From Rheinheimera sp. SA_1 (GTDB lineage Bacteria > Pseudomonadota > Gammaproteobacteria > Enterobacterales > Alteromonadaceae), in NCBI RefSeq assembly GCF_001669775.1, contig NZ_LXWK01000016.1, forward strand, positions 682,001 through 746,000: a stretch of DNA of 64,000 nucleotides, in the 5' to 3' direction. How positions within the stretch are numbered: the first letter of the stretch is position 1; each line of letters opens with the position of its first letter. A program made the position numbers and the translations under genes. Positions 6,566-46,605 of this stretch are shown here, piece after piece. The notes beneath the pieces are model-generated. The model was not told the DNA's origin. It did no database searches and worked only from the letters and a program-made list of their open reading frames with translations.

Positions 6566-8032
6566 ATGTTTAAACCATCGTCTATTGCAGTGGCGATTGC
6601 CTGTTTGCTGCACACCGGCCTGGCGCATGCCGAAGGCTACAAACTTTATGAACAATCGGTCAGTAGTATGGGCAATGCTTATGCCGGCCGTGGCGCGCAA
6701 ATCAGCGATGCCAGTCTGGTCTACTCAAACCCGGCTGCGCTTAGTCAGCTCAAAGGACCACAATGGTCTGGCGGCCTGAATATCATTGACGCAGATACCC
6801 AATACCGCGATGTTGCCGCTGCCAATGCCAACGGCACCTCTGTGATTGGTCGCAGCTCAGGTAAAAATAGTTTAATTGAAGCGGTACCTTTTGCGTTTTT
6901 TGCTGATGAACTGAATAACGACATCCACTACGGCTTCGGCTTTTATGTGCCTTTTGGCTTGTCCAGCGACTATGACAATGACTGGGCCGGCCGCTATTTC
7001 GCCGACGAAACGGCGATTCAGGTGCTGGCACTACAAGGCTCAGTGTCGTATGAATTGACACCACAATGGTCAGTTGGTTTAGGTCTGAATCTGAATCATG
7101 CTGAAGGCACCTTATCCAAATACAAAGATCACAATGGATTGTGCGAAACCGGTAGCAAAATTAACGCTATTTATCAGCGGGATGTCTACAATGCGGCTTA
7201 TTGTGACAGCCATTATGAAGTGTCAGGTGACGATGTCGCCGCAGGTTACAGTTTAGGCTTGCACGGTCAGCCGCTATCTGGCCTGAAAGTGGCCATCGTT
7301 TACCACTCAGAGCTGAAATTCCAACTACGGGGTGATTCGGTCATCACCAATACCCCAATCACCGGTGCCAATGTTGCTGGCTCACCAAATTTTATTGTGG
7401 TTGCTCCGCAACTACCTGCCATCGACAAAGCAACCGGCAAACTGGCAGCACAACCGAAGCTTGTTGAAGCCAGCAGGTTGGCTTTAACGACGCCGGCCAA
7501 TATGATACTGAGTCTGGATCAGCAACTTACCACCGACTGGTCCTGGCAAGCCAGTGTCAACTGGACCGGCTGGAGCGCTTTTAAAAATATTGAAATTGTC
7601 AGTGACGATGCCAATCCATCGCTGTCACTTTCGACCAGCCAACCGCAAAATCTGGCTAAGCCGGGCTACATTGGTTACATCCCGGAATACTGGCGCGATA
7701 GTTGGTCAACAGCGCTTGGTTTGACCTGGCAATACCAACCGGATCTAAGCCTAAAAACCGGTGTCGCTTTTGACGAAAATCCGATCTCACAAAGTCACAA
7801 AACAGCCAGGGTTCCGACTGCTGACCGTTTGTGGTGGACCATCGGCGCCAACTGGACAATCGACAGCCACTGGACATTGGATCTTGCCTACGGTTACATG
7901 TGGATGAGTGCTTTAACAATTGACGAGCATGAGTTTAATGCCAATGATCAACGCATTTATAAATCGCAGTTGCAGGCATCTTTTAAAAACCATGCCCAGG
8001 TATTGGGCATGCAGCTGAATTACCGCTATTAA
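6566..8032 (+). CDS. fadL: FadL-family outer-membrane long-chain fatty acid transporter
   Basis: A 488-residue OmpP1/FadL/TodX protein. The ATG at 6566 follows AGGAAG and gives a clean signal peptide ending HTGLAHA before EGYKLYEQSVSSMGNAYAG, the typical FadL N-terminus whose plug domain enters the barrel. SNPAALS is the conserved motif after it. The rest alternates as beta strands and ends in an aromatic residue (LNYRY), as outer-membrane barrels do. It takes up long-chain fatty acids or other hydrophobic compounds. The gene is monocistronic, convergent with the DUF4097 gene. A longer frame from 6533 lacks the signal peptide at its start and is less likely. Confidence 0.92.
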   Translation: MFKPSSIAVAIACLLHTGLAHAEGYKLYEQSVSSMGNAYAGRGAQISDASLVYSNPAALSQLKGPQWSGGLNIIDADTQYRDVAAANANGTSVIGRSSGKNSLIEAVPFAFFADELNNDIHYGFGFYVPFGLSSDYDNDWAGRYFADETAIQVLALQGSVSYELTPQWSVGLGLNLNHAEGTLSKYKDHNGLCETGSKINAIYQRDVYNAAYCDSHYEVSGDDVAAGYSLGLHGQPLSGLKVAIVYHSELKFQLRGDSVITNTPITGANVAGSPNFIVVAPQLPAIDKATGKLAAQPKLVEASRLALTTPANMILSLDQQLTTDWSWQASVNWTGWSAFKNIEIVSDDANPSLSLSTSQPQNLAKPGYIGYIPEYWRDSWSTALGLTWQYQPDLSLKTGVAFDENPISQSHKTARVPTADRLWWTIGANWTIDSHWTLDLAYGYMWMSALTIDEHEFNANDQRIYKSQLQASFKNHAQVLGMQLNYRY

Positions 8033-8094
8033 AATTTGCCTGACACTTTAGATAACAATTGTGAGTATTACTGTGTGATACGAACAAAAGCAGC

Positions 8095-8133: not shown

Positions 8134-9129
8134 TTAGCGTGCTTCTACCGTCAGATCGCCGCTAACTGTGGACATATCAATACTGCCATCGCCACTACCA
8201 GTGCTGAATTCCAGGCTACGGCGCGGGCCATATTTGGCTTTGTCAGCTTTTTGTGATGTCAGTTTATTGTCGATATCACCACCGGCGCTGGCCTCCAGCT
8301 TAAACCGCGCGCTCAGTTTTGGTTCCAGTTTTAACTTGGCCGAACCACTGACCGTGCTGGTGTTGATGCGAGGAGTCAGACTACCTTTTAAGTCGGCAGT
8401 AATTTCACCGTTCACCGCACTGAAATCCAGTCGCTCAGTGCCTTCCAGTTTCAGATCGGCTTCACCGTTCACGACTGACACATCAATTTCCGTCGCTTTG
8501 CTTTGCAGCTTAATTTCTCCATTCACCGATTCTGCCGACAGACGGCCACTGGAGCCTTGATCATCAATTTCGCCGTTGACAGTATTCAATTTGATCCGGC
8601 CAGAGTTATCAATGCTGTCGATTTCACCATTCACTGTTTCCAGGCTGATGTCATTTTTTAACTGTTTGCCGACAATGGTACCGTTAACTGTGGTCAGTTT
8701 GCTGCCGCCCTCCACACCACTGGCCGTGACATTGGCATTTACACCGCTAAATTCAATCTGACTGCCGACCGGCACCTCAATCTGCAACATCGAGCCTTCT
8801 TTATCATTGCTGTCGTGCCAGTTGCTGTAGGTACTTTGCGGCATTTTCACTTCAAAACGGGTAAAGCCATCTTTAGAAATCAGCTCAAAGCCTTCAGCTT
8901 TCTCATCAAGTTTGCCTTTGACACTAAACACATTTTTGCTAACGGCCTTAATTTCGACATTGCCGCGCATGTTTTCGATGTATATTTTTTCGTTGGCCCG
9001 AACATCACGCTGTTCGTTAATTTGTTCAGCGGCAAGCGCTGGCTGCGCCAAGCAGATAGCACTAATTAATAACAGCGCAATACGATTAGGGGCAAATGTT
9101 TTCATGGTAGCTCTTTTGATAATAGTCAT
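8134..9129 (-). CDS. DUF4097-type exported repeat protein
   Basis: A 331-residue exported protein. The ATG at 9129 has an excellent AGGAG 7 nt upstream; an internal ATG at 9105 would also give a signal peptide. Cleavage is likely after AQPALA. The mature protein repeats a VNGEI-like unit about every 20 residues (TTVNGT, ETVNGE, NTVNGE, ESVNGE, SVVNGE, SAVNGE, STVSGS), which should stack into a right-handed beta structure as in DUF4097/adhesin-like proteins. It is the last gene of an operon behind an ECF sigma factor and its anti-sigma, so it is probably an envelope protein of that regulon. The exact function is unknown. Confidence 0.85.
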   Translation of the reverse strand: MTIIKRATMKTFAPNRIALLLISAICLAQPALAAEQINEQRDVRANEKIYIENMRGNVEIKAVSKNVFSVKGKLDEKAEGFELISKDGFTRFEVKMPQSTYSNWHDSNDKEGSMLQIEVPVGSQIEFSGVNANVTASGVEGGSKLTTVNGTIVGKQLKNDISLETVNGEIDSIDNSGRIKLNTVNGEIDDQGSSGRLSAESVNGEIKLQSKATEIDVSVVNGEADLKLEGTERLDFSAVNGEITADLKGSLTPRINTSTVSGSAKLKLEPKLSARFKLEASAGGDIDNKLTSQKADKAKYGPRRSLEFSTGSGDGSIDMSTVSGDLTVEAR

Positions 9130-36696: not shown

Positions 36697-39600
36697 ATGG
36701 AAATTACGTTGCCTACGCCCCCGTCAGTTGAAAAAATGCAGTTTGATAACTACCGTGAACCTTCCGCGCCGAAATCGTATAGCAGCGAAGCCGACACAAC
36801 TGCACGTCAGCCGAAAAAAGTCCGTCGTAGCCTCATTCCCTGGCTGTTGCTGTTATTGCTGATCGCCGGAACTGTCTTGGTTGCATATGAAATGCACACC
36901 GCCAACTACAGCGCCAAACCCATCAGCGACTATGCCAAAACTCTGACTTATCAATTAAAATCTGGCCCGTCCAACAACATCGTTTACCCGCAAGCCGGCC
37001 CGTTCGATGAACGCCATGGTTACAGCCGACTGCCGCAATTATTACCCCGGCTGCTGGACCGTAATTTCCGCATTATGGCACAAACTGAATTTTCTCCGGC
37101 GCTGCAACACTACGCTGAACAAGGCTTGTTCCCGCCTTATCGCGAAAAAGTGCAATCAGGCTTATTTTTAGCCGATTGTCGTAACGAAACCTTATTCGAT
37201 TTTAATTACCCACAACGGGTCTATCGTGACCCACGCGAAATCCCATTGGTCGTCGCGCATAGCCTGCTGTTTATTGAAAACCGTAATTTGCTGCGTATTC
37301 CGCCAATGGCCAACCCGGTGATGGACTGGCCACGTTTTATCATGGCGGCAGCCAGTCAAGTGGGTAAAGTGTTGTCGGTGGGCGGCCAGTCCGCCGGTGG
37401 TAGTACCTTGGCCACCCAGATTGAAAAATTCCGCCACTCGCCGCAGGGTTTAACCCGCAGCTTTAAAGATAAAGCGGTGCAGATTATTTCCGGTACCATC
37501 CGCGTTTATGCACACGGCACCAATACCATGGGTATGCGCACACGAATTGTGCAGGATTATTTAAACACAGTGCCGTTATCATCAGCACCAGGCCATGGTG
37601 AAGTGCATGGCGTGGGTGATGCGCTGTATGCCTGGTTTGGCAGTGATTTTGCCAAAGCCAATCAGTTACTCAGTAACCCGGAACAACCGGCAACCGCCAG
37701 TGAACGGGCGCAATATTTCCGCCAGATTGTTGCGCTGATGATTGCGCAGCGCCGCCCTTCTTATTATTTGCTGCAAGGCCATGATGATCTGGAAGAGCTC
37801 ACCAACAGCCATATCCGGCTGTTGGCGAACGCCGGTATTGTCGATGCTTCCTTACGCGATTTAGCATTGTCACAGAAACTCACCTTCGTCCGCGCGAAAC
37901 CGAACCAGTCACAAGCCGAACAGGATGCGCGAAAAGGCATCAACGCCGCCCGGTTGCGTTTAGGGAATTTGTTGAATCAACCAATGTACGATCTGGACCG
38001 GTTAGATCTCAACGCTCACAGCGCCTTACACGGTGAAGTGCAGCAAAAAGTCAGCGCCTATTTACGTAGCCTGGCGAACCCGGACACGGCCGCCAAATAT
38101 GGTCTGATTGGTGAGCGGCTGTTAAGCGCCAAAGGCACCGCCGAAGTACTGTACAGTTTTACCTTGTTTGAAAAAACCAGTGACGGTAACAGAGTGCGGG
38201 TGCAAACCGACAGTACAGATCAACCTTTTGATTTAAATGAACATAGTAAACTGGAGCTGGGTTCTACCGCCAAACTGCGGGTGCTGGCCACTTACCTGGA
38301 AATTGTCGCCGAGCTGCACCAGAGTTTCGCTGACGAATTACCGGTCAACTTGCTGAATCTGGATATTGCGCCGCAAGACCATATCACCCGTTGGGCTTCA
38401 CAATATATGGCGCAAACTTCAGATCGCAGCCTGACCGCCATGCTGGATGCAGCTTTACAGCGCACCTATTCAGCCTCCCCTGCCGAACGGTTTTTTACCG
38501 GTGGTGGTTTGCAGGTATTTAATAACTTCGATAATAAAGAAAACGGCAAGGTGCCAACTGTGGCCGAGTCGTTACAGCAATCGCACAACCTGCCATTTGT
38601 GCGGTTGATGCGCGATATCGTGGCATATTCCAGCAGTTATCAAACCCTTGGCAGCAGCTCGTTGTTACTGCGCAGCGATAAAGATCCAAAACGGGAAGAA
38701 TACCTGCGCCGGTTTATCGATAAAGAAGGCACCGAATTTTTACGCAAATTCTGGCGCAAGTACCAGCAAAAACCGGCCGATGAACGTCTCGAAGTATTTT
38801 TTGACGGCTTAAAACAAACACCGGATCGCTTGGCCGCAGTGCACCGCTATTTATTACCGGAGTCTGATTTTGCGCTATTCAGCCGTTTTTTAATCGACAA
38901 ACTGCCGGATGAACAACTGACACCGAAAAAACTGAACGAGTTGTATAACAAATACGGTCCGGGTAAATTCAGCCTGCCGGATCAGGGTTATATCGCCAAA
39001 GTGCACCCGCTGGAACTGTGGTTACTTAGCTACATGAACAAAAACCCGGATGCTAAGTTTAACGACGCCGTGGCGCAAAGCAGCGAGCAACGCCAGCAAG
39101 TGTATCGCTGGTTGTTTAAAACCAGTAACCGTAGCGCCCGCGACAACCGCATCCGCATTATGCTGGAAGTTGAAGCCTTTCTCGACATCCACCAGCGCTG
39201 GGCCAAACTGGGTTACGCCTTTGACCACTTAGTGCCGTCATTGGGCACGGCGTTGGGCAGCTCCGGCGACCGCCCGGCTGCGCTGGCTGAACTGATGGGG
39301 ATTATCCAGAATGATGGCGTGAAGCTGCCCACCATCCGCATCGACAGCCTGCATTTTGCCGCCAAAACACCGTACGAAACCATGCTGCAATATAACGCCA
39401 GCGCGGGTGAACGGGTGATGCGACCAGAAGTGGCACGGGCGCTGAAGAAAACTTTGGGTCAGGTGGCTGAGCTTGGTACCGCGAGGCGGTTGACCGGCAG
39501 TTTTATCAAAGCCGATGGCAGCGCGCTGAAAATTGGCGGCAAAACCGGCACCGGTGATAACCGGGTCGCCACGCAAGTAGTACGTGGCAAAGTGATGGCA

Positions 39601-39807
39601 TCAACCGTTAACAACCGCACTGCCACTTTTGTGTTCTTCTTAGGCGACAACTATTTTGGCACTCTGACCGCTTTTGTGCCGGGCAAAGGCGCCGACGGTT
39701 TCAGCTTCACCTCCGCCCTGCCACTACAAGTGCTCAAAGGCATGGCACCGCTGATTAAGCCTTATGTGGTGAAAAATAGCCCGATGTGTGCAGTCCCAAC
39801 TAAATAA
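36697..39807 (+). CDS. Class A penicillin-binding protein (GT51 transglycosylase plus transpeptidase)
   Basis: A 1036-residue membrane protein. A cytoplasmic N-terminus, one helix (SLIPWLLLLLLIAGTVLVA) and a GT51 domain with the catalytic Glu in LFIENRNLL and QSAGGSTLATQIEKFRHSPQG come first. The transpeptidase part carries SxxK in LGSTAKLRVLATYLE and KTG in KIGGKTGTGDNR. It makes and cross-links peptidoglycan. It is longer than PBP1a/b and has a large middle insertion, so it may be a specialised cell-wall enzyme. Monocistronic, with a hairpin after the stop. Confidence 0.9.
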   Translation: MEITLPTPPSVEKMQFDNYREPSAPKSYSSEADTTARQPKKVRRSLIPWLLLLLLIAGTVLVAYEMHTANYSAKPISDYAKTLTYQLKSGPSNNIVYPQAGPFDERHGYSRLPQLLPRLLDRNFRIMAQTEFSPALQHYAEQGLFPPYREKVQSGLFLADCRNETLFDFNYPQRVYRDPREIPLVVAHSLLFIENRNLLRIPPMANPVMDWPRFIMAAASQVGKVLSVGGQSAGGSTLATQIEKFRHSPQGLTRSFKDKAVQIISGTIRVYAHGTNTMGMRTRIVQDYLNTVPLSSAPGHGEVHGVGDALYAWFGSDFAKANQLLSNPEQPATASERAQYFRQIVALMIAQRRPSYYLLQGHDDLEELTNSHIRLLANAGIVDASLRDLALSQKLTFVRAKPNQSQAEQDARKGINAARLRLGNLLNQPMYDLDRLDLNAHSALHGEVQQKVSAYLRSLANPDTAAKYGLIGERLLSAKGTAEVLYSFTLFEKTSDGNRVRVQTDSTDQPFDLNEHSKLELGSTAKLRVLATYLEIVAELHQSFADELPVNLLNLDIAPQDHITRWASQYMAQTSDRSLTAMLDAALQRTYSASPAERFFTGGGLQVFNNFDNKENGKVPTVAESLQQSHNLPFVRLMRDIVAYSSSYQTLGSSSLLLRSDKDPKREEYLRRFIDKEGTEFLRKFWRKYQQKPADERLEVFFDGLKQTPDRLAAVHRYLLPESDFALFSRFLIDKLPDEQLTPKKLNELYNKYGPGKFSLPDQGYIAKVHPLELWLLSYMNKNPDAKFNDAVAQSSEQRQQVYRWLFKTSNRSARDNRIRIMLEVEAFLDIHQRWAKLGYAFDHLVPSLGTALGSSGDRPAALAELMGIIQNDGVKLPTIRIDSLHFAAKTPYETMLQYNASAGERVMRPEVARALKKTLGQVAELGTARRLTGSFIKADGSALKIGGKTGTGDNRVATQVVRGKVMASTVNNRTATFVFFLGDNYFGTLTAFVPGKGADGFSFTSALPLQVLKGMAPLIKPYVVKNSPMCAVPTK

Positions 39808-39818
39808 AACTGTTAAGC

Positions 39819-39850
39819 CCTTGTCCTTCAACTGTTTTTGAAGGACAAGG
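39819..39850 (+). other. Hairpin after the penicillin-binding protein gene
   Basis: Perfect 12-bp arms CCTTGTCCTTCA (39819-39830) and TGAAGGACAAGG (39839-39850) around an 8-nt loop, 11 bp after the stop codon. No T-run follows. It may stabilise the 3' end or terminate with a factor. Confidence 0.5.
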
Positions 39851-40020
39851 CCGCAATGCCAAGCTGCCCAACCGGCCAACCGGCCAACCTTGACCTAGTG
39901 TTCCAAAAGCGTTATTACACTTGCCAACTGGCTGCAAACGCCCCGAATCCCTGCATCAGCAGCTCCTGCCTTAAAGCAATCATTGGTCCTTCAGCACTTC
40001 GCACAGTACCTGTTTTTTTC

Positions 40021-40050
40021 CTTTTCAAAACAAGCGACTTCAGTTAGTCT
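40021..40050 (+). promoter_or_regulatory. Conserved promoter block upstream of precursor 1
   Basis: A 30-bp block (CTTTTCAAAACAAGCGACTT and onward) that differs by one base from the block at 40637-40666 upstream of precursor 2. It probably contains the promoter or activator site. Precursor 3 lacks it. Confidence 0.55.
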
Positions 40051-40079
40051 TAACCAGCGTATTACCTATTAACAAAACG

Positions 40080-40119
40080 TTGATGTTACAACCGACTGAA
40101 GCTTTTGGTTCAGCATCAA
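40080..40119 (+). promoter_or_regulatory. 5' leader hairpin of precursor 1
   Basis: TTGATG (40080-40085) pairs with CATCAA (40114-40119), with an extended upper stem ACAACC/GGTT. The hairpin ends 37 nt before the start codon. Equivalent hairpins precede precursors 2 and 3. Confidence 0.6.
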
Positions 40120-40155
40120 TTCGAAGTTCCAACTCAGCTAATTTTAGGGATAGAT

Positions 40156-40422
40156 ATGTCACTGATCCATGTTATCGAGCAACTGGGTACCAATGCAGCA
40201 TTACAGCAATTAAGTCAGGCACAACTGATGGCGATGTTTAGTGATGCGGCTACCGATAAAAATCAACTGGAAGCACTTTTAAAAGGCAACGTTGATGGTT
40301 TGTCAGAGTTGCTGGAAGTTCCGGTTTATCGTTGCGTAACGGAAGTCGCGTCGCAAGATGATGATTCTGCTGAAGAAGAAAAAGTAGAACATACCATCCA
40401 ACAGTCTATCAATTTACAGTAA
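40156..40422 (+). CDS. Split-borosin precursor peptide 1
   Basis: An 88-residue small protein. The start ATG at 40156 follows the leader TTTTAGGGATAGAT; the longer frame from 40105 contains the leader hairpin and is not coding. MSLIHVIEQLGTNAALQQL begins a helical region (about 1-54) resembling the borosin-binding domain of split precursors. A hydrophobic beta-branched stretch PVYRCVTEVA (56-65) is the likely core, followed by an acidic tail and IQQSINLQ. The function as methyltransferase substrate is inferred from the borosin N-methyltransferase 3.7 kb downstream. Its own promoter and terminator suggest separate, probably high, expression. Confidence 0.75.
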   Translation: MSLIHVIEQLGTNAALQQLSQAQLMAMFSDAATDKNQLEALLKGNVDGLSELLEVPVYRCVTEVASQDDDSAEEEKVEHTIQQSINLQ

Positions 40423-40450
40423 CTCATGAACTGAAAATTTTAATTGAACC

Positions 40451-40511
40451 CCGAGGCGGTACTGGCAGTTGTCAGATTATTGAGATTGCCAGTACCAACT
40501 CGGTGTTTTTT
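40451..40511 (+). terminator. Terminator of precursor 1
   Basis: Outer stem CCGAG/CTCGG and inner stem GGTACTGGCA (40458-40467) with TGCCAGTACC (40487-40496), then TGTTTTTT. A textbook intrinsic terminator 29 bp after the stop. Confidence 0.85.
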
Positions 40512-40636
40512 CGCAAAGTAGACCAAGTCTATTTGTTTTGAATTTTACGGATAAATCTAAACTTCTTCAAATAACTGAAATTGAAAAAAATGTGACGATA
40601 ATTTGTATCTGTGCATTTCGCCTAGTTACTATTTTT

Positions 40637-40666
40637 CTTTTCAAAACAAACGACTTCAGTTAGTCT
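40637..40666 (+). promoter_or_regulatory. Conserved promoter block upstream of precursor 2
   Basis: CTTTTCAAAACAAACGACTT and onward, 29 of 30 bases identical to the block at 40021-40050. The same distance to the leader hairpin shows that promoter, leader and gene were duplicated together. Confidence 0.55.
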
Positions 40667-40696
40667 AAATAGGCTTATGAGCTATTAACAATAGCG

Positions 40697-40736
40697 TTGA
40701 TGTGAGAACTGATTTAGGCTTGTGGTTCAACATCAA
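40697..40736 (+). promoter_or_regulatory. 5' leader hairpin of precursor 2
   Basis: TTGATGT (40697-40703) pairs with ACATCAA (40730-40736) and GAAC with GTTC above it. It ends 36 nt before the ATG. The upper stem sequence differs from precursor 1 but stays paired. Confidence 0.6.
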
Positions 40737-40771
40737 ATCGAATTTCCAATCAGCTAATTTTAGGGATAGAT

Positions 40772-41050
40772 ATGTCACTGATCCATGTTATCGAGCAACT
40801 AGGCACGAATTCCGCATTACAGCAATTAAGTAAAGTGCAATTGATGGACATTTTTAGTGATGCGACCACAGATTCAAATCAATTAGAAGCATTGTTAAAT
40901 GGCAATGTTGAAAAACTCTCTGATTTACTTCAAGTTCCGGTTTATCGTTGTGTAACAGAACACGCAACCGAAGAAGAGGAGTTGCCTGGTAATAATGAGT
41001 GTGAGAAATCAATTCAACAGTCTGTCAATTTGCCACAACTCCTGAACTGA
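40772..41050 (+). CDS. Split-borosin precursor peptide 2
   Basis: A 92-residue paralogue of precursor 1. Residues 1-60 align without gaps (MSLIHVIEQLGTNSALQQLS, NQLEALLNGN, PVYRCVTEHA with Cys60). The tail after the core is acidic and differs (EEEE, a GNN segment, a second Cys), then IQQSVNL. The stop TAA of copy 1 reads CAA here, so PQLLN is added. Leader identical in layout to precursor 1. Probably modified by the same N-methyltransferase. Confidence 0.75.
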   Translation: MSLIHVIEQLGTNSALQQLSKVQLMDIFSDATTDSNQLEALLNGNVEKLSDLLQVPVYRCVTEHATEEEELPGNNECEKSIQQSVNLPQLLN

Positions 41051-41069
41051 AAATTTTAATTGAACCACG

Positions 41070-41128
41070 AGATCGGTACTGGCAATTTCAGACTACTGAT
41101 ATTGCCAGAAACCGTTTCGGAGTGTTTT
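41070..41128 (+). terminator. Terminator of precursor 2
   Basis: Homologous to the precursor 1 terminator but with a changed stem: CTGGCAAT pairs with ATTGCCAG, with outer CGGT/ACCG and then a T-rich tail. The base changes keep pairing. Confidence 0.7.
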
Positions 41129-41340
41129 CAAATAGAATACCGAAGTTATTAATTTGAAACTTCAGGAATAGAGTTTTAGCTAGATCTATTAACTGAAATT
41201 GAAAAGATTTAGACTCCATCAGAGCGTTGAAAACTTTGCCATAACAGGTTAAATGTTCCTTCTTCGTTTGATGGATCCATGTCTTTTAAAAATAGCCTGG
41301 TTCGGTTACGCTGAGCGGGCTTGTTAATTTTTTACAAATT

Positions 41341-41382
41341 TTTGATGTTAATAAAGATTTTTATGCCCATTTAAACATCAAA
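41341..41382 (+). promoter_or_regulatory. 5' leader hairpin of precursor 3
   Basis: TTTGATGTT (41341-41349) pairs with AACATCAAA (41374-41382). It ends 36 nt before the ATG, as for precursors 1 and 2, although the rest of this upstream region is unrelated to theirs. Confidence 0.6.
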
Positions 41383-41417
41383 TCATAGATCCAACGTAGC
41401 TAATTTTGGAGTTAAAT

Positions 41418-41684
41418 ATGTCACTTATTCAGGTTATCGAACAACTGGGCGCCAACTCGGCATTACAACAATTAACCCCGGCAGAACTTAAATCTTTATT
41501 TACCAACGACGAGATCGACAATATCCAACTGGAAGCAGTTGTAAGTGGTGACATTGAAAATTTAAATGCACTATTGAATACGATAGTATATCAGTGTGTT
41601 GTACAGGTTCCTGCTGAACAAGAAGATGAGCCTGTAGAGGAAGATGAACAAGAATCATCGAAACAATCTATTCATTTACAATAA
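41418..41684 (+). CDS. Split-borosin precursor peptide 3
   Basis: An 88-residue diverged paralogue. The ATG at 41418 follows GGAG with 7 nt spacing. MSLIQVIEQLGANSALQQLT and NIQLEAVVSGDIENLNALL keep the putative binding domain. The core region is IVYQCVVQVP with Cys60 in the same position; the tail is strongly acidic and ends SKQSIHLQ. No terminator follows: the next gene starts 10 bp later, so this copy heads the operon with the sensor, acetyltransferase and methyltransferase. Confidence 0.75.
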   Translation: MSLIQVIEQLGANSALQQLTPAELKSLFTNDEIDNIQLEAVVSGDIENLNALLNTIVYQCVVQVPAEQEDEPVEEDEQESSKQSIHLQ

Positions 41685-41694
41685 CTGAGATTCC

Positions 41695-43443
41695 GTGAAC
41701 AGCCTTATTTCTATTTTGGGTGTGGTGTTACTACTCATAGTAACACCGGTTCTGGCCAATGAAAAATTATCTGAATTATTTGCTAAAATAGACCAGATTA
41801 AAGCATCAGACCCTGCGCAATTTAAAGTTTTATTGCAACAGATTGGTCAGTATGACCTCGCTTCCAACGATCTACAATACTATCTGTATTTACAAGGCTA
41901 CCACGCTCAATATCTCGGCGAACATGACAAAGCTTTCACATTTTATGAAAAATCTTTATTAGCCGGTAATTCAATAGATATAGAGTACAAAGTTCTAGCA
42001 CTACTTTCAAACTTAATGACTGTTAGACAAAATATTACAGCGGCGTTTAGCTACCTTTTTCAGGCTATGGCTCTGGCCGACAAAGTCTCGGATCCCAATC
42101 TTAGACCCATGGCAAAAGTAACAGCGTTAACAACATATATGAGCATGAAGCTCTATCAAGAAACACAAAACATTAGCTTGGAATTGATCGAAGATGATAT
42201 CCAAGGCAGGTACAGATGCGTTGCTATTTTTTATAATGATTACAGTACGCAAGAATTGACACCAGACAAAGTATCGTTGGAACGTTTGCAAAAAGGTGCT
42301 GACTATTGCATTAGCCAGAATGATCCTTTAACTGCGTTGTTCGCACAAGCATTGGTAGCCAGATACTACCTATTCCATCAAGACTATACCCAAGTGGAAA
42401 AAGTTATTAATGCCCATCTTCCCGCAGTTGAAAAACTTGGTTTTGCTCACCTTATAGGTCATTATTATGTGCTTCTTACTCAGGCGCAATTGGCATTGAA
42501 TCAGCCAGATTCAGCTGAAAAAACCTTAGGACTGCTTTTTACACTGCAGCATCAATTGTCTACTAGTGAACCTATGGTCGAAGGGTACCGTCTAAAAGCT
42601 CAGCTTGACGAAATACAGGGTCGTGACACTAAAGCATTGCTAGCTTACAAACAGTATGTACAAGCTGACAAAATTTACAAAAACACACTATCACTCCAGC
42701 AAACTGCTTATCATCTTGCAAAAAATGAAATCCTTAATAAAAACCAGCAAATCGCCCTGTTGGAGAAAAATAACACTTTACTGACATTGGAAAATGAACT
42801 GGCTGTTGCAGAAAATGACAATAAAAAACTACTGATTGCCTTACTATTAACCACCTTGGTTTTTATAAGTTATGTCGCCTTCAGAGCATTTCGTAATAGC
42901 AGTATCTACCGAAAAATTGCCGAAAATGACAGTTTGCTTGGCATTAGTAACAGATACTATTTTACAAAAACAGTGTCCGCATTGTTGGTGACCAGCAAAC
43001 CAGCCCAGCAGATTGATGCCTTTATTATTTTTGATTTAGACTGGTTTAAACAGGTAAATGATCGACATGGTCATTTAACCGGTGACTGGGTGTTAAAAGC
43101 GGTCGTTGAGCATTGCCGGCAATTTGTTCGTAACGTCGATGTTTTTGGACGGATCGGCGGTGAAGAATTCGCGATTTTTTTACCGGCCTGTACCGCGGAG
43201 AAAGCCGCATTGCTGGCGGAAATTCTACGGGATGTGATTGAGCAAATTGACTGCAGCGGCAGTGGCCATCCGATAAAAACTAGCGCCAGTTTTGGGGTCA
43301 CTTGCACCGACCGCTCTGGTTATGAACTGCGGCAACTGTTCCGTGATGCCGATATCGCCCTTTATCTGTCAAAAAACCAGGGGCGTAATAAAGTGACTTT
43401 ATTTGAACCCACTCAACAAAAAGAAAACCCTGCAGCACTATGA
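41695..43443 (+). CDS. TPR-containing membrane diguanylate cyclase
   Basis: A 582-residue protein starting at a GTG. Signal peptide (ILGVVLLLIVTPVLA), a periplasmic TPR-like helical repeat domain (about 25-330), a short coiled coil, one membrane helix (about 378-398) and a GGDEF domain. The GGDEF motif is GRIGGEEFAIF at about residue 485 and looks active; there is no obvious RxxD inhibitory site. It should make c-di-GMP in response to a periplasmic signal. It sits inside the borosin operon: 10 bp after precursor 3, overlapping the GNAT gene by 4 bp. Confidence 0.88.
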   Translation: MNSLISILGVVLLLIVTPVLANEKLSELFAKIDQIKASDPAQFKVLLQQIGQYDLASNDLQYYLYLQGYHAQYLGEHDKAFTFYEKSLLAGNSIDIEYKVLALLSNLMTVRQNITAAFSYLFQAMALADKVSDPNLRPMAKVTALTTYMSMKLYQETQNISLELIEDDIQGRYRCVAIFYNDYSTQELTPDKVSLERLQKGADYCISQNDPLTALFAQALVARYYLFHQDYTQVEKVINAHLPAVEKLGFAHLIGHYYVLLTQAQLALNQPDSAEKTLGLLFTLQHQLSTSEPMVEGYRLKAQLDEIQGRDTKALLAYKQYVQADKIYKNTLSLQQTAYHLAKNEILNKNQQIALLEKNNTLLTLENELAVAENDNKKLLIALLLTTLVFISYVAFRAFRNSSIYRKIAENDSLLGISNRYYFTKTVSALLVTSKPAQQIDAFIIFDLDWFKQVNDRHGHLTGDWVLKAVVEHCRQFVRNVDVFGRIGGEEFAIFLPACTAEKAALLAEILRDVIEQIDCSGSGHPIKTSASFGVTCTDRSGYELRQLFRDADIALYLSKNQGRNKVTLFEPTQQKENPAAL

Positions 43444-44048
43444 CTTATCCCATTCAAAAGTTTATTCGAAGCGCCCGTTTAAGTTTATCTGCAATGACCC
43501 AGGCAGAACTGACGCTGTACCAGAATTTGTATGCTGATCCTGTCACGATGCAATATATCGGTCCCTGTTTTGACAAAGAACAAAGTGCGGTGTTTTTTCA
43601 GAACTGCCTGAAAAGGATCAAAAAAGCCGATTCCGGCTGGCATTTTTTTGCTATTCAGCTTCATAACCAAAAAGATGCCATTGGGTTTATATCGCTGATA
43701 AAAAAACCATTTGTTGAGGCTCCATTTGAGCTTGGCATTATATTAAGTGCAACCGCCCGGGGTTTAGGTTATGCCGACGAAGCATTAACGGCATTATTTT
43801 TACACTGTTTTATTGGAGCCAAGGTACCGGCTTTATTGGCTTGTGTAGACCCACGCAACCTTGGCGCCGTGAAACATATCAAACACTTTGGTTTTGTTGA
43901 CGCCCCTGCTGTGCTTAAAAAAAGTGCTGAGCTCAATAGCTATTTATTACATGCAACTGCTGACAACATCAGCTACCTGCGCACACTCAGCCAACAATTT
44001 TCCGAACAACAATTTGACAAACCGCAACCCGCTCTGGCTGAAGCCTGA
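43440..44048 (+). CDS. GNAT-family acetyltransferase (RimJ/RimL-like)
   Basis: A 202-residue GNAT protein. IRSARLSLSAMTQAELTLYQ and FELGIILSATARGLGYADEAL fit the acceptor and acetyl-CoA-binding region (RGLGYADEA is the R/Q-x-x-G-x-G/A loop), and VDPRNLGAVKHIKHFGF is the C-terminal motif. The start overlaps the GGDEF stop as ATGA, implying translational coupling. It may acetylate a peptide N-terminus or side chain, possibly of the precursor, but the substrate is unknown. Confidence 0.85.
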   Translation: MTYPIQKFIRSARLSLSAMTQAELTLYQNLYADPVTMQYIGPCFDKEQSAVFFQNCLKRIKKADSGWHFFAIQLHNQKDAIGFISLIKKPFVEAPFELGIILSATARGLGYADEALTALFLHCFIGAKVPALLACVDPRNLGAVKHIKHFGFVDAPAVLKKSAELNSYLLHATADNISYLRTLSQQFSEQQFDKPQPALAEA

Positions 44049-44090
44049 ACTTAACAGCAGTTTCATTTGATAACACTCTAAGGAATTCCC

Positions 44091-44948
44091 ATGCAGCCAG
44101 GCAGCATTGTGATCGTTGGCACCGGTATTACGTTAGGCTCGCACATCAGTCCGTTATCACGCAGTTATATTGAAAATGCCGATGTGGTCTTTGCCGGGGT
44201 GGCCGATGGCATTACCGAACTTTGGCTCAAAGAAATGCATCCAGATGTGCGTAGTTTTGCACCGCTGTATGCTGAAGGTAAATCACGCCATATAACCTAT
44301 CAAGAGATGATTGATTTAATGCTAGTCGAAGTGAGGCTCGGCAAAAAGGTTGTTTGTGCTTTTTATGGTCACCCCGGCGTCTTTGCTTACGCACCACATA
44401 AAGTGATTGAACTGGCTCGTGCCGAAGGTTATGCCGCTCATATGGAGCCTGGCATCAGCTCTGCTGACTGTTTACATGCTGCGCTAGGTATTGACCCGGG
44501 TAAAGTCGGTTGTCAGTATTTTGAAGCCAGCCAGTATATGTTTTATCAACGTAATATCGACCCAACAGCCTATCTGGTGTTGTGGCAAGTAGGCATCGCC
44601 GGCGATAAAAGCCATGCCCGTTTTGCCACCGGCGCCGCCTATCGCCAGGTGTTGGTTGACTTGCTGGCCGAGCACTACCCGCTCAGCCACGAAGTTATTT
44701 TATACGAAGCCGCCAGCCTGCCCTTTCAACAAGCGCGGATCACCCATTTACCACTCTCAGCATTACCCGACGCCGAGATGAACCTGAAAACCACCATGGT
44801 GGTGCCCCCTGCCCGCAAGCTGGAGAAAAACTTGCAGGTTCTGGCACGGCTGGCAGCTATACGCGCTGCTGAGTTGGAAGCTGCGGCATCCACTGCCGAG
44901 TTTGAAGTTCCTGAGGGCGAATATCAGGCCGCTGAGATTAGCAACTGA
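44091..44948 (+). CDS. Borosin-type peptide backbone alpha-N-methyltransferase (split form)
   Basis: A 285-residue SAM-dependent enzyme of the tetrapyrrole-methylase fold. It matches the fungal OphMA core closely: GSIVIVGTGI, EGKSRHITYQEM, EVRLGKKVV, FYGHPGVFAY, EGYAAHMEPGISSADCL and GCQYFEAS. The four OphMA catalytic residues (Tyr66, Arg72, Tyr76, Tyr98, from memory) correspond to Tyr60, Arg66, Tyr70 and Tyr92. It lacks a C-terminal substrate domain, so it acts on a separate precursor, as in the split borosins. Start ATG behind AAGGAA, 42 bp after the GNAT gene. A normal precorrin or uroporphyrin methylase role is unlikely because of the GKSR/FYGHPG set. Confidence 0.9.
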   Translation: MQPGSIVIVGTGITLGSHISPLSRSYIENADVVFAGVADGITELWLKEMHPDVRSFAPLYAEGKSRHITYQEMIDLMLVEVRLGKKVVCAFYGHPGVFAYAPHKVIELARAEGYAAHMEPGISSADCLHAALGIDPGKVGCQYFEASQYMFYQRNIDPTAYLVLWQVGIAGDKSHARFATGAAYRQVLVDLLAEHYPLSHEVILYEAASLPFQQARITHLPLSALPDAEMNLKTTMVVPPARKLEKNLQVLARLAAIRAAELEAAASTAEFEVPEGEYQAAEISN

Positions 44949-44958
44949 AGCATCAGCG

Positions 44959-46605
44959 CTAAGCCGCAACAACCTCCTGCATGGCGCTGCGCACTGCAGG
45001 GATCAACCGCCGACTGACTGGCACCTGCTGCCCGCCAACGAGTAACAACACCGCACCACTGCCACTGTCGGTATCGGTGGTGGTACGAAATTGCCGGACA
45101 TGCCGGACATTCACCAGGTAAGAGCGGTGCACCCGGATAAATCGCGCCGGTAATTGCTCTTCCAGCGCTCTAAGCGTTCCGCTATAGAGCTGCTGACGAC
45201 CATCCAACAGCAAGATTTCGGTATAGTCGCGTGCTGCCTGACAATAAGCAATCTCGTCAATCGGCAACAGCTGCACTTTACCGGCACTGGTTAAGGTTAG
45301 ATTCGCCTTTGGCTCGGTGGCGCCATGTTGTTGCAGCTGTTGCTGTAATTGCAGAATTAACTGTTGATCGGCCAGTTGCAATTGCTGCTGGTGCTGATGT
45401 TGCACCGCCTGCTCAATAAACAACGCGCACAGCAGTAGTGTCATCAGTACAAAGGCCAGGATCTCCTGGAAAATACCGGTTAGCAGCACCGCGAGCAGCA
45501 CATACAACAACAATAACAACGCACTGCTACCGGCACCGTTCGCAACCGGATAATCCACGTCCTCGGGCGTGCGCCAGCGTAAGGCAGCCAACACCGCGGC
45601 AATGCACACCGGTAAAAAAGTTGCGACGGCAATGCGCGCATCAAAACTGTCCAGCCAAAGCAGCACCGGCAGCGTCAGCAGCACAGTCGCTACCAGCCAG
45701 TAGTGCCATTGTGCGCGTTGATACCGTAGCGCCGTAAGTAACAACAGGCAACCGCCAAAACCGCAGGAACAGCACAAAATGGCCAGCAGCCGTAGATCGT
45801 GCATAGGATAAGGATATCCCACCAGACCCCGCACCATTTCCAGCCATAACTGACCTGCAGCAAAAAAACAGAGCAGCGCTAACAGTGTATTCTGCCAGCG
45901 TCGTGGCATGATCGCCGAATTGGCAAACACCGACGTTGCTGATTGCTGACTACGCAGCGCCAACACACTGAAATACAACAGCCCTGTCAGTAAAATGCCC
46001 AGCAGTACCAGACCCAGTTCGCTATGTTGCTGCAGATATGCATTGGCATCGCGATAGGGGCCAATGCCAATAAAATGAATGGGCTGGGCCAGTGTCAGCC
46101 AGCCATGTTGGGCCGACATCTGCACCACCAGTTGATTCTGGCCAGGGCGCAATAAGGACGATGGCAGATAAAAACGGCTATCCATCGCCCCCGGCACTTC
46201 ATCTGCCGCCAGACCAGGACGACCATTGCGACCAATCAGTTGACCATTCAGATAAACCGCACTGGAGGCTCTGGCGTTAATAAACAGTGCCTGCGGCGTT
46301 GTTGGTTCTACTGTGGGATCGTGCGGCTGCGCTGAGGGCAACTCAAATGGTAACTGCAACCACAGCAGCCGCCCTTGTGGATCCGCAGTAACGTCGCTTT
46401 GCTGCTGACAGCCCACTTCTTGAAAGTCTGTTGGCATTGCTTGAACTTGCTGACCATCACACCAGGCCACAATCGCAAGCTGTTGCAACTGCGCTGGCAT
46501 CATCGGCTGGCGCAATACCAGCCACAGGCAAGCCAATAACAACAACAGCAGCGTGATCCCACCATAACGGGAAAAATGAACTTTGGTCGGGTGCAACGTC
46601 TGCAT
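44959..46605 (-). CDS. Membrane LytTR-domain regulator (7TM-DISM-like)
   Basis: A 548-residue protein: an N-terminal helix, an extracytoplasmic beta-sandwich (about 60-190, with ALFINARASSAVYLNG), seven membrane helices (about 200-390), a Gln-rich coiled coil and a C-terminal LytTR DNA-binding domain (about 440-548, with IDEIAYCQAARDYTEILL and RFIRVHRSYLVNVRHV). It combines sensor and DNA binding in one polypeptide. Start ATG behind GGAG. Divergent from the alpha/beta hydrolase gene; a TACCGCT motif occurs twice between them (about 46655 and 46687). Confidence 0.9.
   Translation of the reverse strand: MQTLHPTKVHFSRYGGITLLLLLLACLWLVLRQPMMPAQLQQLAIVAWCDGQQVQAMPTDFQEVGCQQQSDVTADPQGRLLWLQLPFELPSAQPHDPTVEPTTPQALFINARASSAVYLNGQLIGRNGRPGLAADEVPGAMDSRFYLPSSLLRPGQNQLVVQMSAQHGWLTLAQPIHFIGIGPYRDANAYLQQHSELGLVLLGILLTGLLYFSVLALRSQQSATSVFANSAIMPRRWQNTLLALLCFFAAGQLWLEMVRGLVGYPYPMHDLRLLAILCCSCGFGGCLLLLTALRYQRAQWHYWLVATVLLTLPVLLWLDSFDARIAVATFLPVCIAAVLAALRWRTPEDVDYPVANGAGSSALLLLLYVLLAVLLTGIFQEILAFVLMTLLLCALFIEQAVQHQHQQQLQLADQQLILQLQQQLQQHGATEPKANLTLTSAGKVQLLPIDEIAYCQAARDYTEILLLDGRQQLYSGTLRALEEQLPARFIRVHRSYLVNVRHVRQFRTTTDTDSGSGAVLLLVGGQQVPVSRRLIPAVRSAMQEVVAA

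What the first reader, a model, noticed from the sequence alone, without database searches (positions are those of the whole stretch)
40021..44948. Split-borosin RiPP locus with three precursor peptides
A borosin-type backbone N-methyltransferase (44091-44948) lies downstream of three tandem 88-92-residue paralogues whose N-terminal helical half, hydrophobic beta-branched stretch after it, and acidic tail match the layout of split-borosin precursors (SonA of Shewanella, from memory). A GGDEF sensor and a GNAT acetyltransferase are in the same operon. Split borosins are known, but three precursors plus this accessory set is, to my knowledge, not a described architecture.
Basis: partly seen in the sequence, partly recalled or inferred. 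Interest (0 to 1): 0.92.

Follow-up and report, generated by a model that had tools for sequence, protein, structure and literature searches.

The report
Split-borosin locus with paired c-di-GMP sensor
A bacterium carries three copies of a small peptide gene, an enzyme of the kind that methylates peptide backbones, and a membrane sensor whose predicted outer part varies in step with the peptide between related genomes, which suggests, but does not prove, that these little-understood peptides are signals between cells.

Summary
The window (genus Rheinheimera) encodes a SonM-type backbone N-methyltransferase (44091-44948; 2e-80 to SonM) and three tandem SonA-type precursors (40156-40422, 40772-41050, 41418-41684) with the borosin-binding leader: a type IV split borosin locus.

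The GGDEF protein is no exotic accessory: a GGDEF gene directly follows a precursor gene, same strand, in 56 of 59 precursor-bearing loci; in the other three the contig ends. It encodes a predicted periplasmic TPR domain, one membrane helix and an intact GGEEF motif.

Among 12 Rheinheimera loci, methyltransferase and GGDEF domain average about 95% identity, but TPR domain (59%), precursor tail (62%) and GNAT (58%) differ sharply. TPR domain and tail vary together (partial Mantel r 0.87). The sensor region is exchanged between lineages, and two precursor-free TPR-GGDEF paralogues lack this pattern. Pheromone-receptor loci such as comQXPA behave so.

Best reading: borosin peptides are ligands of the linked diguanylate cyclase. 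The three precursors look like signal-gene duplication plus allele exchange: P3 and the sensor resemble other relatives' genes more than R. riviphila's, P2 and P1's leader resemble R. riviphila's. Methylation, export and binding are untested.

The parts
40016..40075 (+). conserved upstream box of P1 (also before P2 and before the precursor of three relatives), perhaps promoter region
   Evidence: repeat family D2, 85% to the P2 copy, 60% to the P3 region; alignment with L002, L003, L005. No sigma-70-like site was listed here
40156..40422 (+). P1, split-borosin precursor, 88 aa; leader 94% identical to the single precursor of R. riviphila (L002), the rest only 42%
40446..40508 (+). terminator-like hairpin after P1
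   Evidence: -35.6 kcal/mol, z -6.7; inverted repeat I1
40632..40691 (+). second copy of the conserved upstream box, before P2
40772..41050 (+). P2, split-borosin precursor, 92 aa; nearest to the L002 precursor (leader 80%, rest 61%)
41060..41131 (+). terminator-like hairpin after P2
   Evidence: -29.6 kcal/mol, z -6.5
41418..41684 (+). P3, split-borosin precursor, 88 aa, directly upstream of the sensor; its part after the leader is nearest to L003 and L005 (62% each; L002 55%)
41695..43443 (+). sensor diguanylate cyclase: signal-peptide-like residues 1-21, TPR superhelix (about residues 25-307), long helix (311-410) with TM segment, GGEEF domain with RxxD I-site; Cys175 and Cys205 invariant in 38 aligned sensors
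43440..44048 (+). GNAT-fold acetyltransferase, hypervariable between relatives
   Evidence: PF13302 8.6e-20
44091..44948 (+). SonM-type peptide backbone alpha-N-methyltransferase, with a C-terminal extension of about 25-30 residues relative to SonM
   Evidence: PF00590 8.5e-22; 7ltc_A 2.2e-80; active-site residues

Best explanation
The locus is a type IV split-borosin pathway that most likely works as a polymorphic peptide-signalling system with c-di-GMP output. Steps: (1) the MT docks the five-helix leader of P1, P2 or P3 and methylates backbone amides just after it, about residues 60-65, the C-V-T-E-V / C-V-V-Q-V stretch (homology, conserved residues and predicted leader fold shown; the methylation itself inferred). 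(2) An unknown peptidase frees a C-terminal peptide; the GNAT may acetylate it or help set its specificity (inferred). (3) The methylated peptide reaches the periplasm and neighbouring cells, perhaps by membrane permeation, since no dedicated exporter recurs in the clusters (inferred). (4) It binds the periplasmic TPR domain of the adjacent sensor; the signal passes through a 100-residue helix and TM segment to the GGEEF cyclase and changes c-di-GMP (predicted architecture and co-variation shown; binding inferred). (5) Precursor tail plus sensor form an exchangeable specificity cassette. In the window a P3-sensor pair nearer to L003/L005 sits beside P2 and a P1 leader nearer to L002, as expected of signal-gene duplication and allele exchange during a change of specificity (inferred).
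For: Type IV borosin. A same-strand GGDEF gene directly follows a precursor in 56 of 59 precursor-bearing loci, the other three at contig ends, while MT position and orientation vary. Sensors: GGEEF in 55 of 57, RxxD in 49 of 57, a hydrophobic peak before the GGDEF domain in 57 of 57 and near the N-terminus in 48; model mean pLDDT 90.7. Variability in 12 Rheinheimera sensors is high in the TPR part and drops at residue 290 of the model. Coupling in these 12 loci: TPR vs precursor tail Mantel r 0.90, partial given MT and GGDEF 0.87, p 0.0002; post-core segment, cut on an alignment, 0.86. Exchange: sharp edges; dS of the TPR domain above that of MT in 6 of 6 different-allele pairs, below it in 3 of 3 same-allele pairs; on a gap-free upstream flank three of five sensor groups are rejected (AU p 1.1e-11, 4.4e-5, 0.0008), the other two are groups there too. 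Controls: two TPR-GGDEF paralogues without a precursor hit are not hypervariable (G007-G015: 98% vs 29% for the borosin sensor; G000-G004: 86% and 92% vs 55%). Precedents: phr duplications in Rap-Phr (PMC5199041 section 12); ComX and the ComP N-terminus variable, cytoplasmic part conserved (PMC4008528 passages).
Against: No binding, methylation, secretion or c-di-GMP data. Precursor tail and TPR domain are neighbours, so exchange of one DNA tract alone would give correlated divergence; the leader, which lies towards the GNAT in these loci, tracks the GNAT as well (0.74), which fits linkage. dN/dS in the TPR domain is below 1 wherever dS is not saturated: no direct sign of positive selection. 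Synonymous divergence is also raised in the GGDEF part of different-allele pairs (0.99-1.65), so the whole sensor gene is exchanged and part of the TPR-GGDEF contrast is constraint on GGDEF. A first flank alignment, with gaps, rejected only two of the five groups (p 0.061 and 0.39 for two others). Three control comparisons show no difference (G000-G007, G000-G018, G007-G018), as expected if these share an allele type, but they are not support. P1's part after the leader is no nearer to L002 (42%) than to L003/L005 (47%, 44%). Over all 54 usable loci the tail-TPR partial correlation is weak (0.20). No exporter or peptidase in the window's cluster; a pepsin-like peptidase was not found in this genome. 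Of 9 other class-level genomes with an MT hit only 2 loci have a GGDEF gene.
Confidence: 0.6

Rival explanations
1. The locus makes an antimicrobial or other bioactive borosin; the sensor senses an outside cue (competitor, envelope state, metal) and c-di-GMP tunes production, so the sensor is upstream of the peptide, not its receptor.
For: A fungal borosin paper reports bioactivity of its products (PMC7878506, title and start of abstract in the listings). Sensor and biosynthesis genes are co-located. Toxin-type genes also diversify fast (general knowledge).
Against: A sensor of an outside cue has no obvious reason to co-vary with the precursor C-terminus or to be exchanged with it. No immunity gene or dedicated exporter was seen among the 40 largest neighbour clusters (read by eye).
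Confidence: 0.2
2. Linkage only: a recombination hot spot swaps the GNAT-precursor-sensor tract, and peptide and sensor share no function; variability reflects for example avoidance of phage or predators that use the TPR domain.
For: Tail and TPR domain are adjacent; dN/dS below 1 where measurable; GNAT tracks the leader.
Against: Precursor-sensor adjacency is kept through several gene orders and across genera while the MT moves and flips. Control TPR-GGDEF paralogues do not show the excess. The GNAT ends only 110-162 bp before the precursor, yet tail vs GNAT given the TPR domain is -0.24.
Confidence: 0.12
3. The uncleaved precursor or its BBD leader is itself the sensor's partner; no small natural product is made.
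For: BBD-like folds cap the active sites of dioxygenases (PMC8429565 section 7); the leader also co-varies with the TPR domain (partial r 0.69); no peptidase in the window's cluster.
Against: The window precursors begin directly with the BBD, without a signal peptide, while the TPR domain is predicted periplasmic.
Confidence: 0.06

Closest known systems
SonM-SonA type IV split borosin of Shewanella oneidensis (PMC8429565; outline, sections 6-9 and 16 and passages read)
   Same: Separately encoded MT; precursor with five-helix BBD; active-site residues conserved. In the Shewanella loci fetched here (other species) a GGDEF gene also follows the precursor. GGDEF does not occur in that paper's main text.
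   Different: Three tandem precursors; an acidic stretch and C-terminal tail after the core; GNAT present; gene order precursor-sensor-GNAT-MT; MT has a C-terminal extension.
comQXPA quorum sensing of Bacillus (PMC4008528, passages read)
   Same: Small precursor, modifying enzyme and membrane receptor in one locus; signal and receptor input domain highly variable, output domain conserved.
   Different: Other protein families; backbone methyltransferase in place of isoprenyl transferase; diguanylate cyclase in place of histidine kinase; Gram-negative hosts.
Rap-Phr (PMC5199041, abstract and section 12 read)
   Same: Duplicated, diverging signal genes beside one receptor; TPR-type receptor (the TPR fold of Rap is recalled).
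   Different: Rap is cytoplasmic and Phr is unmodified and imported (recalled); no N-methylation, no c-di-GMP.
RcbA-RcbB of Vibrio vulnificus (PMC12282931, abstract and passages read)
   Same: TPR-GGDEF cyclase whose TPR domain represses the cyclase and is relieved by a gene-neighbour partner.
   Different: Predicted cytoplasmic; the partner is a TPR protein, not a peptide. The same paper mentions Vibrio parahaemolyticus cyclases with predicted periplasmic TPR domains, so that domain layout is not new by itself.
Borosin types 0-X(XI) with GGDEF as a label in the architecture figure of PMC11395268 (sections 3, 9, 28 and passages read; figure not held)
   Same: At least one published borosin architecture carries a GGDEF domain.
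   Different: Which type, and whether fused or neighbouring, could not be read; no function or polymorphism in the parts read.

Membership tests
Type IV split borosin | Separately encoded alpha-N-methyltransferase and precursor | tested here: met
   MT 44091-44948, precursors as separate ORFs
Type IV split borosin | MT homologous to SonM with the active-site residues Y58, R67, Y71, Y93 | tested here: met
   phmmer 2.2e-80; residue check on that alignment
Type IV split borosin | Precursor with five-helix borosin-binding domain homologous to SonA | tested here: met
   Profile without Shewanella hits SonA, E 2e-6; with six more Shewanella precursors 1.7e-14; model with five helices in residues 3-53. 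Foldseek top match is a SonA chain but E 1.2, not significant alone
Type IV split borosin | Core peptide shortly after the BBD | tested here: inconclusive
   Hydrophobic stretch at residues 60-64 of P1 lies where the SonA core begins; the true core is not known
Type IV split borosin | Backbone N-methylation of the precursor (+14 Da) | not testable with these tools
   needs co-expression and mass spectrometry
Peptide pheromone-receptor system (functional class) | Precursor gene paired with its receptor gene | tested here: met
   Pairing with the candidate receptor: 56 of 59 precursor-bearing loci, the other three at contig ends; that it is the receptor is inferred
Peptide pheromone-receptor system (functional class) | Extracytoplasmic input domain joined to an intracellular output domain | tested here: met
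   Prediction only: hydrophobicity, model, invariant Cys pair
Peptide pheromone-receptor system (functional class) | Matched polymorphism of signal and receptor input domain | tested here: met
   In 12 Rheinheimera loci with controls; weak over all 54 loci (0.20); linkage not excluded as cause
Peptide pheromone-receptor system (functional class) | Released signal that changes receptor output | not testable with these tools
   needs binding and c-di-GMP assays
comQXPA or agr | Homologous ComQ/ComX/ComP or AgrB/D/C components | tested here: not met
   Pfam and NCBIfam scans give TP methylase, GNAT and GGDEF/TPR families and none of these
RcbB-type cytoplasmic TPR-GGDEF | Cytoplasmic location | tested here: not met
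   signal-peptide-like start and TM peak in the window sensor; prediction only

The most novel reading that the evidence does not exclude
A class of Gram-negative peptide pheromones: backbone N-methylated RiPPs sensed by a periplasmic TPR diguanylate cyclase, diversified into exchangeable pherotypes in Rheinheimera and probably in Shewanella, Paraglaciecola and xanthomonad relatives, so that a borosin pathway feeds c-di-GMP decisions between kin. The window's three-precursor locus would be a snapshot of a specificity switch.
Probability: 0.5. Interest if true: 0.93.

Novelty: new variant of a known kind. Interest (0 to 1): 0.8.

Why it matters
Miller et al. [quoted passage not shown] a Shewanella product has since been reported as far as I recall, without a function that I know of. 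If the sensor is the receptor, the biological role becomes directly testable, with a defined ligand, receptor and read-out (c-di-GMP). It would also add a peptide-pheromone system with c-di-GMP output in Gram-negative bacteria, with natural allele series for mapping specificity, and would give a reason why one genome stacks three precursors.

Tried and rejected
Single-sequence searches of the precursors: Pfam and NCBIfam gave nothing usable for P1-P3, and phmmer of P2 against the PDB gave only leucine-rich-repeat-type proteins (best E 1.6e-4, spread over many weak repeats), rejected as composition; profile searches settled it.

Iterated precursor HMM: six hits were RseA-like ORFs by eye (drift) and were dropped, leaving 67 precursor ORFs. 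Five of the 24 regions repeated loci already held and were dropped (L071-L075). For the identity comparison 54 loci were used: L026 (two clusters), L036 (motif not recognised) and loci without an adjacent sensor were left out. That comparison used stop-to-stop ORFs for MT and GNAT, which lowers some identities, and cut precursors at residue 54 with a few misplaced starts; an alignment-based cut gave the same picture in the 12 main loci.

Profile A2 (E 7e-6) was first taken as free of Shewanella but contained one (L031, S. fodinae); it was rebuilt without it (E 2e-6). The first flank tree rested on a gappy alignment; it was redone on homologous stretches. Both results are given.

A pepsin-like peptidase (shewasin type; its link to borosins is recalled) as the window's leader peptidase was rejected: PF00026 was not found in this genome and matched in 2 of 22 genus genomes, in both beside a second borosin locus; a similar ORF lies in L027. 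Defence role: no PADLOC match for the six proteins scanned. The consensus scan found fewer promoter- and terminator-like sites than shuffles. The dN/dS check for positive selection on the TPR domain gave none. Foldseek of the whole sensor showed GGDEF structures in the 50 rows listed, so no TPR-peptide template was seen; the sensor profile does match TPR proteins by sequence (GPSM2, 1.5e-10), while the window sensor alone has no TPR match at E 0.01 (best 0.091).

Literature: 'borosin' plus 'GGDEF' gives one paper, which uses GGDEF as a figure label. None of the papers listed (10 of 1,997; 10 of 169) or (8 of 2,169) contains 'borosin'. Recalled, from no call: the Shewanella borosin product, the shewasin-borosin link, agr polymorphism.


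Full report
WHAT IS THERE. The window lies in a Rheinheimera genome (closest named relative by the MT is R. riviphila, L002, 98%). On the + strand it holds P1 (40156-40422), P2 (40772-41050), P3 (41418-41684), a TPR-GGDEF sensor (41695-43443), a GNAT (43440-44048) and a borosin-type methyltransferase (44091-44948). The genome has one MT and three precursors of this kind at the thresholds used. The precursor units repeat at 616 and 646 bp, including about 110 bp upstream. P1 and P2 are each followed by a terminator-like hairpin; P3 runs into the sensor with a 10-nt gap. So P1 and P2 are probably separate transcripts, and P3-sensor-GNAT-MT an operon (inference; the consensus scan listed neither promoter nor terminator there).

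IT IS A SPLIT BOROSIN. The MT matches SonM of Shewanella oneidensis at 2e-80 in the PDB sequence search, and the residues matching SonM Y58, R67, Y71 and Y93 are all kept (their roles from PMC8429565 section 9). A profile of P1-P3 plus 17 relatives, none from Shewanella, has SonA as best PDB match (E 2e-6); with Shewanella sequences included E is 7e-6 (one) and 1.7e-14 (seven). AlphaFold2 of P1 gives five helices within residues 3-53 (mean pLDDT 80, pTM 0.57), as described for the SonA BBD (residues 1-53; PMC8429565 section 7). Foldseek ranks a SonA chain first and 13 of its 26 matches are SonA chains, but its E-values (1.2 and up) are not significant for so small a domain. In 22 Rheinheimera genomes 32 precursor hits were found; 31 lie within 4 kb of an MT hit by coordinates, and the 32nd is cut off by the end of a contig that otherwise resembles this locus. 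The MT is found in 21 of 22 genomes of the genus.

THE ACCESSORY GENES ARE THE RULE. I compared 62 loci: the window, 42 from the genome collection and 19 further Rheinheimera loci (24 regions, five duplicates dropped). All have an MT by construction; 59 have a precursor by iterated HMM, 58 a GGDEF gene within 4.5 kb of the MT, 33 a GNAT within 1.5 kb. Precursors per locus: 52 loci with one, 6 with two, the window alone with three, 3 with none found. In 56 of the 59 a same-strand GGDEF gene directly follows a precursor; in the other three (L008, L040, L076) the contig ends. Gene order otherwise varies: MT before, MT after, or MT divergent. The precursor-sensor pair is therefore the constant unit. 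Clustering of neighbours within 5.5 kb (40 largest clusters printed) showed no other family in more than 12 loci. Those shared between genera look, by eye, like a signal peptidase I and LepA (12 and 10 loci, nearly all one Rheinheimera chromosomal neighbourhood), an FKBP-type isomerase, a membrane GGDEF-like protein and a pepsin-like peptidase (3 loci).

THE SENSOR. Of 38 sensors scanned all match GGDEF and 24 match TPR_12 in Pfam; the window's own sensor reaches a TPR model only at E 0.09, but the family profile matches TPR proteins in the PDB (1.5e-10). Of 57 sensors, 55 read GGEEF, one AGEEF and one was not recognised; 49 have an RxxD inhibition site; all 57 have a hydrophobic peak before the GGDEF domain, 48 also one near the N-terminus. 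Two cysteines in the TPR part are invariant in 38 aligned sensors, which fits a periplasmic disulphide. The model (mean pLDDT 90.7, pTM 0.61) shows an all-helical TPR-like superhelix, one helix of 100 residues that contains the TM segment, and the cyclase domain.

MATCHED POLYMORPHISM. In 12 loci of the main Rheinheimera clade (L078, L080-L090) mean identities are: MT 94%, GGDEF domain 95%, TPR domain 59%, precursor leader 74%, precursor tail 62%, GNAT 58%. Within the precursor, cut on an alignment, the core is conserved (82%) and the end is not (post-core 47%, last nine residues 38%). TPR and tail identities correlate at r 0.90, and at 0.87 after removing MT and GGDEF (p 0.0002). Tail against GNAT, given the TPR domain, is -0.24, although the GNAT ends only 110-162 bp before the precursor. 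Over all 54 usable loci the partial tail-TPR value is only 0.20; tails may be saturated at long range, but this is weak. Variation in the 12 sensors is high across the TPR helices and falls at residue 290, where the long helix begins, with a smaller rise at the TM segment. Six pairs were profiled along the DNA. In the different-allele pairs identity drops from about 84-96% in MT (and homologous flanks) to about 45-68% from GNAT or the precursor through the TPR region and recovers in the GGDEF domain; a second dip follows the sensor gene in the Rheinheimera main-clade pairs. L080 has other upstream neighbours (about 50%, not homologous), and the same-allele pair L084-L088 shows no drop in the cassette. 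The same contrast of MT against TPR appears in Shewanella and Paraglaciecola pairs (L030-L034 MT 86, GGDEF 61, TPR 23; L016-L019 MT 79, GGDEF 87, TPR 35), less so in some xanthomonads (L011-L012 MT 91, TPR 76).

EXCHANGE OF THE CASSETTE. Eleven pairs were used for dN/dS. In six with different alleles (TPR identity under 60%) TPR dS exceeds 2 while MT dS is 0.20-0.73. In three with the same allele TPR dS is 0.06-0.16 while MT dS is 0.17-0.91. Two intermediate pairs (TPR about 80% identical) have TPR dS above MT dS. GGDEF dS is raised as well in the six (0.99-1.65), so the whole sensor gene is exchanged and GGDEF is held by constraint. On a gap-free 3-kb upstream flank the sensor groups L082/83/84/86/88 (AU p 1.1e-11), L082/L083 (4.4e-5) and L085/89/90 (0.0008) are rejected; L084/L088 and L089/L090 are groups there too. 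A first, gappy flank alignment gave 2.6e-5, 0.0007 and 0.061 for the same three, and 0.39 for L084/L088. Two control TPR-GGDEF paralogues, which lie away from any precursor hit, follow the genomes: G007-G015 98% (borosin sensor 29%), G001-G019 95% (55%), G000-G004 86% and 92% (55%), G009-G021 87% (57%); in G000-G007, G000-G018 and G007-G018 controls and sensor are alike.

THE THREE PRECURSORS. P2 is nearest to the single precursor of L002 in leader (80%) and rest (61%). P1 shares its leader (94%) but not its tail (42%, against 47% and 44% to L003 and L005). P3 is nearest to L003/L005 in the part after the leader (62% each; L002 55%). The window's TPR domain is also closer to L003 (65%) and L005 (62-64%) than to its sister genome L002 (55%). 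Against L002, the DNA from about 39600 to 40350 (95-98%) and from about 43850 to 44600 (96-99%) is more alike than the flanks (82-93%), so recombination seems to have acted on both sides of the divergent part. This fits one cognate pair (P3-sensor) beside signal genes of partly another type; P1's tail fits neither parent well. Rap-Phr shows duplicated and diverged signal genes beside one receptor (PMC5199041, section 12).

LIMITS. Linkage could explain part of the co-variation. There is no evidence here for methylation, cleavage, export, binding or cyclase response. Two steps are open: the peptidase (a pepsin-like one was not found in this genome) and the exporter. The GGDEF link belongs to the SonM-like clade: of nine other class-level genomes with an MT hit, two loci have a GGDEF gene. 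GGDEF is already a label in a published borosin architecture figure (legend of PMC11395268), so I do not claim the neighbour gene itself as new; the receptor reading, the matched polymorphism and the meaning of the triple array are what I did not find in print (searches, within the held open-access library only).

Noticed in passing
L043:6956-8733: Two borosin methyltransferase ORFs in tandem before a GGDEF gene; a short ORF at 8726-8917 resembles a precursor start but scores at chance.
   Followed up: no
L038:6986-9814: Methyltransferase split over two frames and a short GGDEF ORF, with a weak precursor-like ORF at 7810-8037: a decaying locus or sequencing errors.
   Followed up: no
L091, L093 (G013, G014) and L027:9853-11109: A pepsin-like aspartic peptidase ORF lies beside a second type of borosin locus; the family was not found in the window's genome.
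   Followed up: partly
44856-44945: The methyltransferase has an acidic C-terminal extension of about 25-30 residues beyond the SonM match; the match to relatives L002-L005 includes it.
   Followed up: no
L081, L082, L084, L089: A second precursor upstream of the methyltransferase, with similar leaders in these four genomes although their sensor alleles differ: perhaps a product with another target.
   Followed up: no
L154:1-4404 (G012): The one genus genome without an MT hit has a contig that ends inside a precursor gene after the same upstream neighbour as in the window: probably an assembly gap.
   Followed up: yes
44959-46605, minus strand: Membrane protein with a LytTR DNA-binding domain, convergent to the locus; a close homologue lies beside the locus only in L002 among the loci (a weak LytTR match in L011).
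   Followed up: no
window genome: 46 matches to the sensor, nearly all in its GGDEF region, in one genome: a large c-di-GMP network.
   Followed up: no
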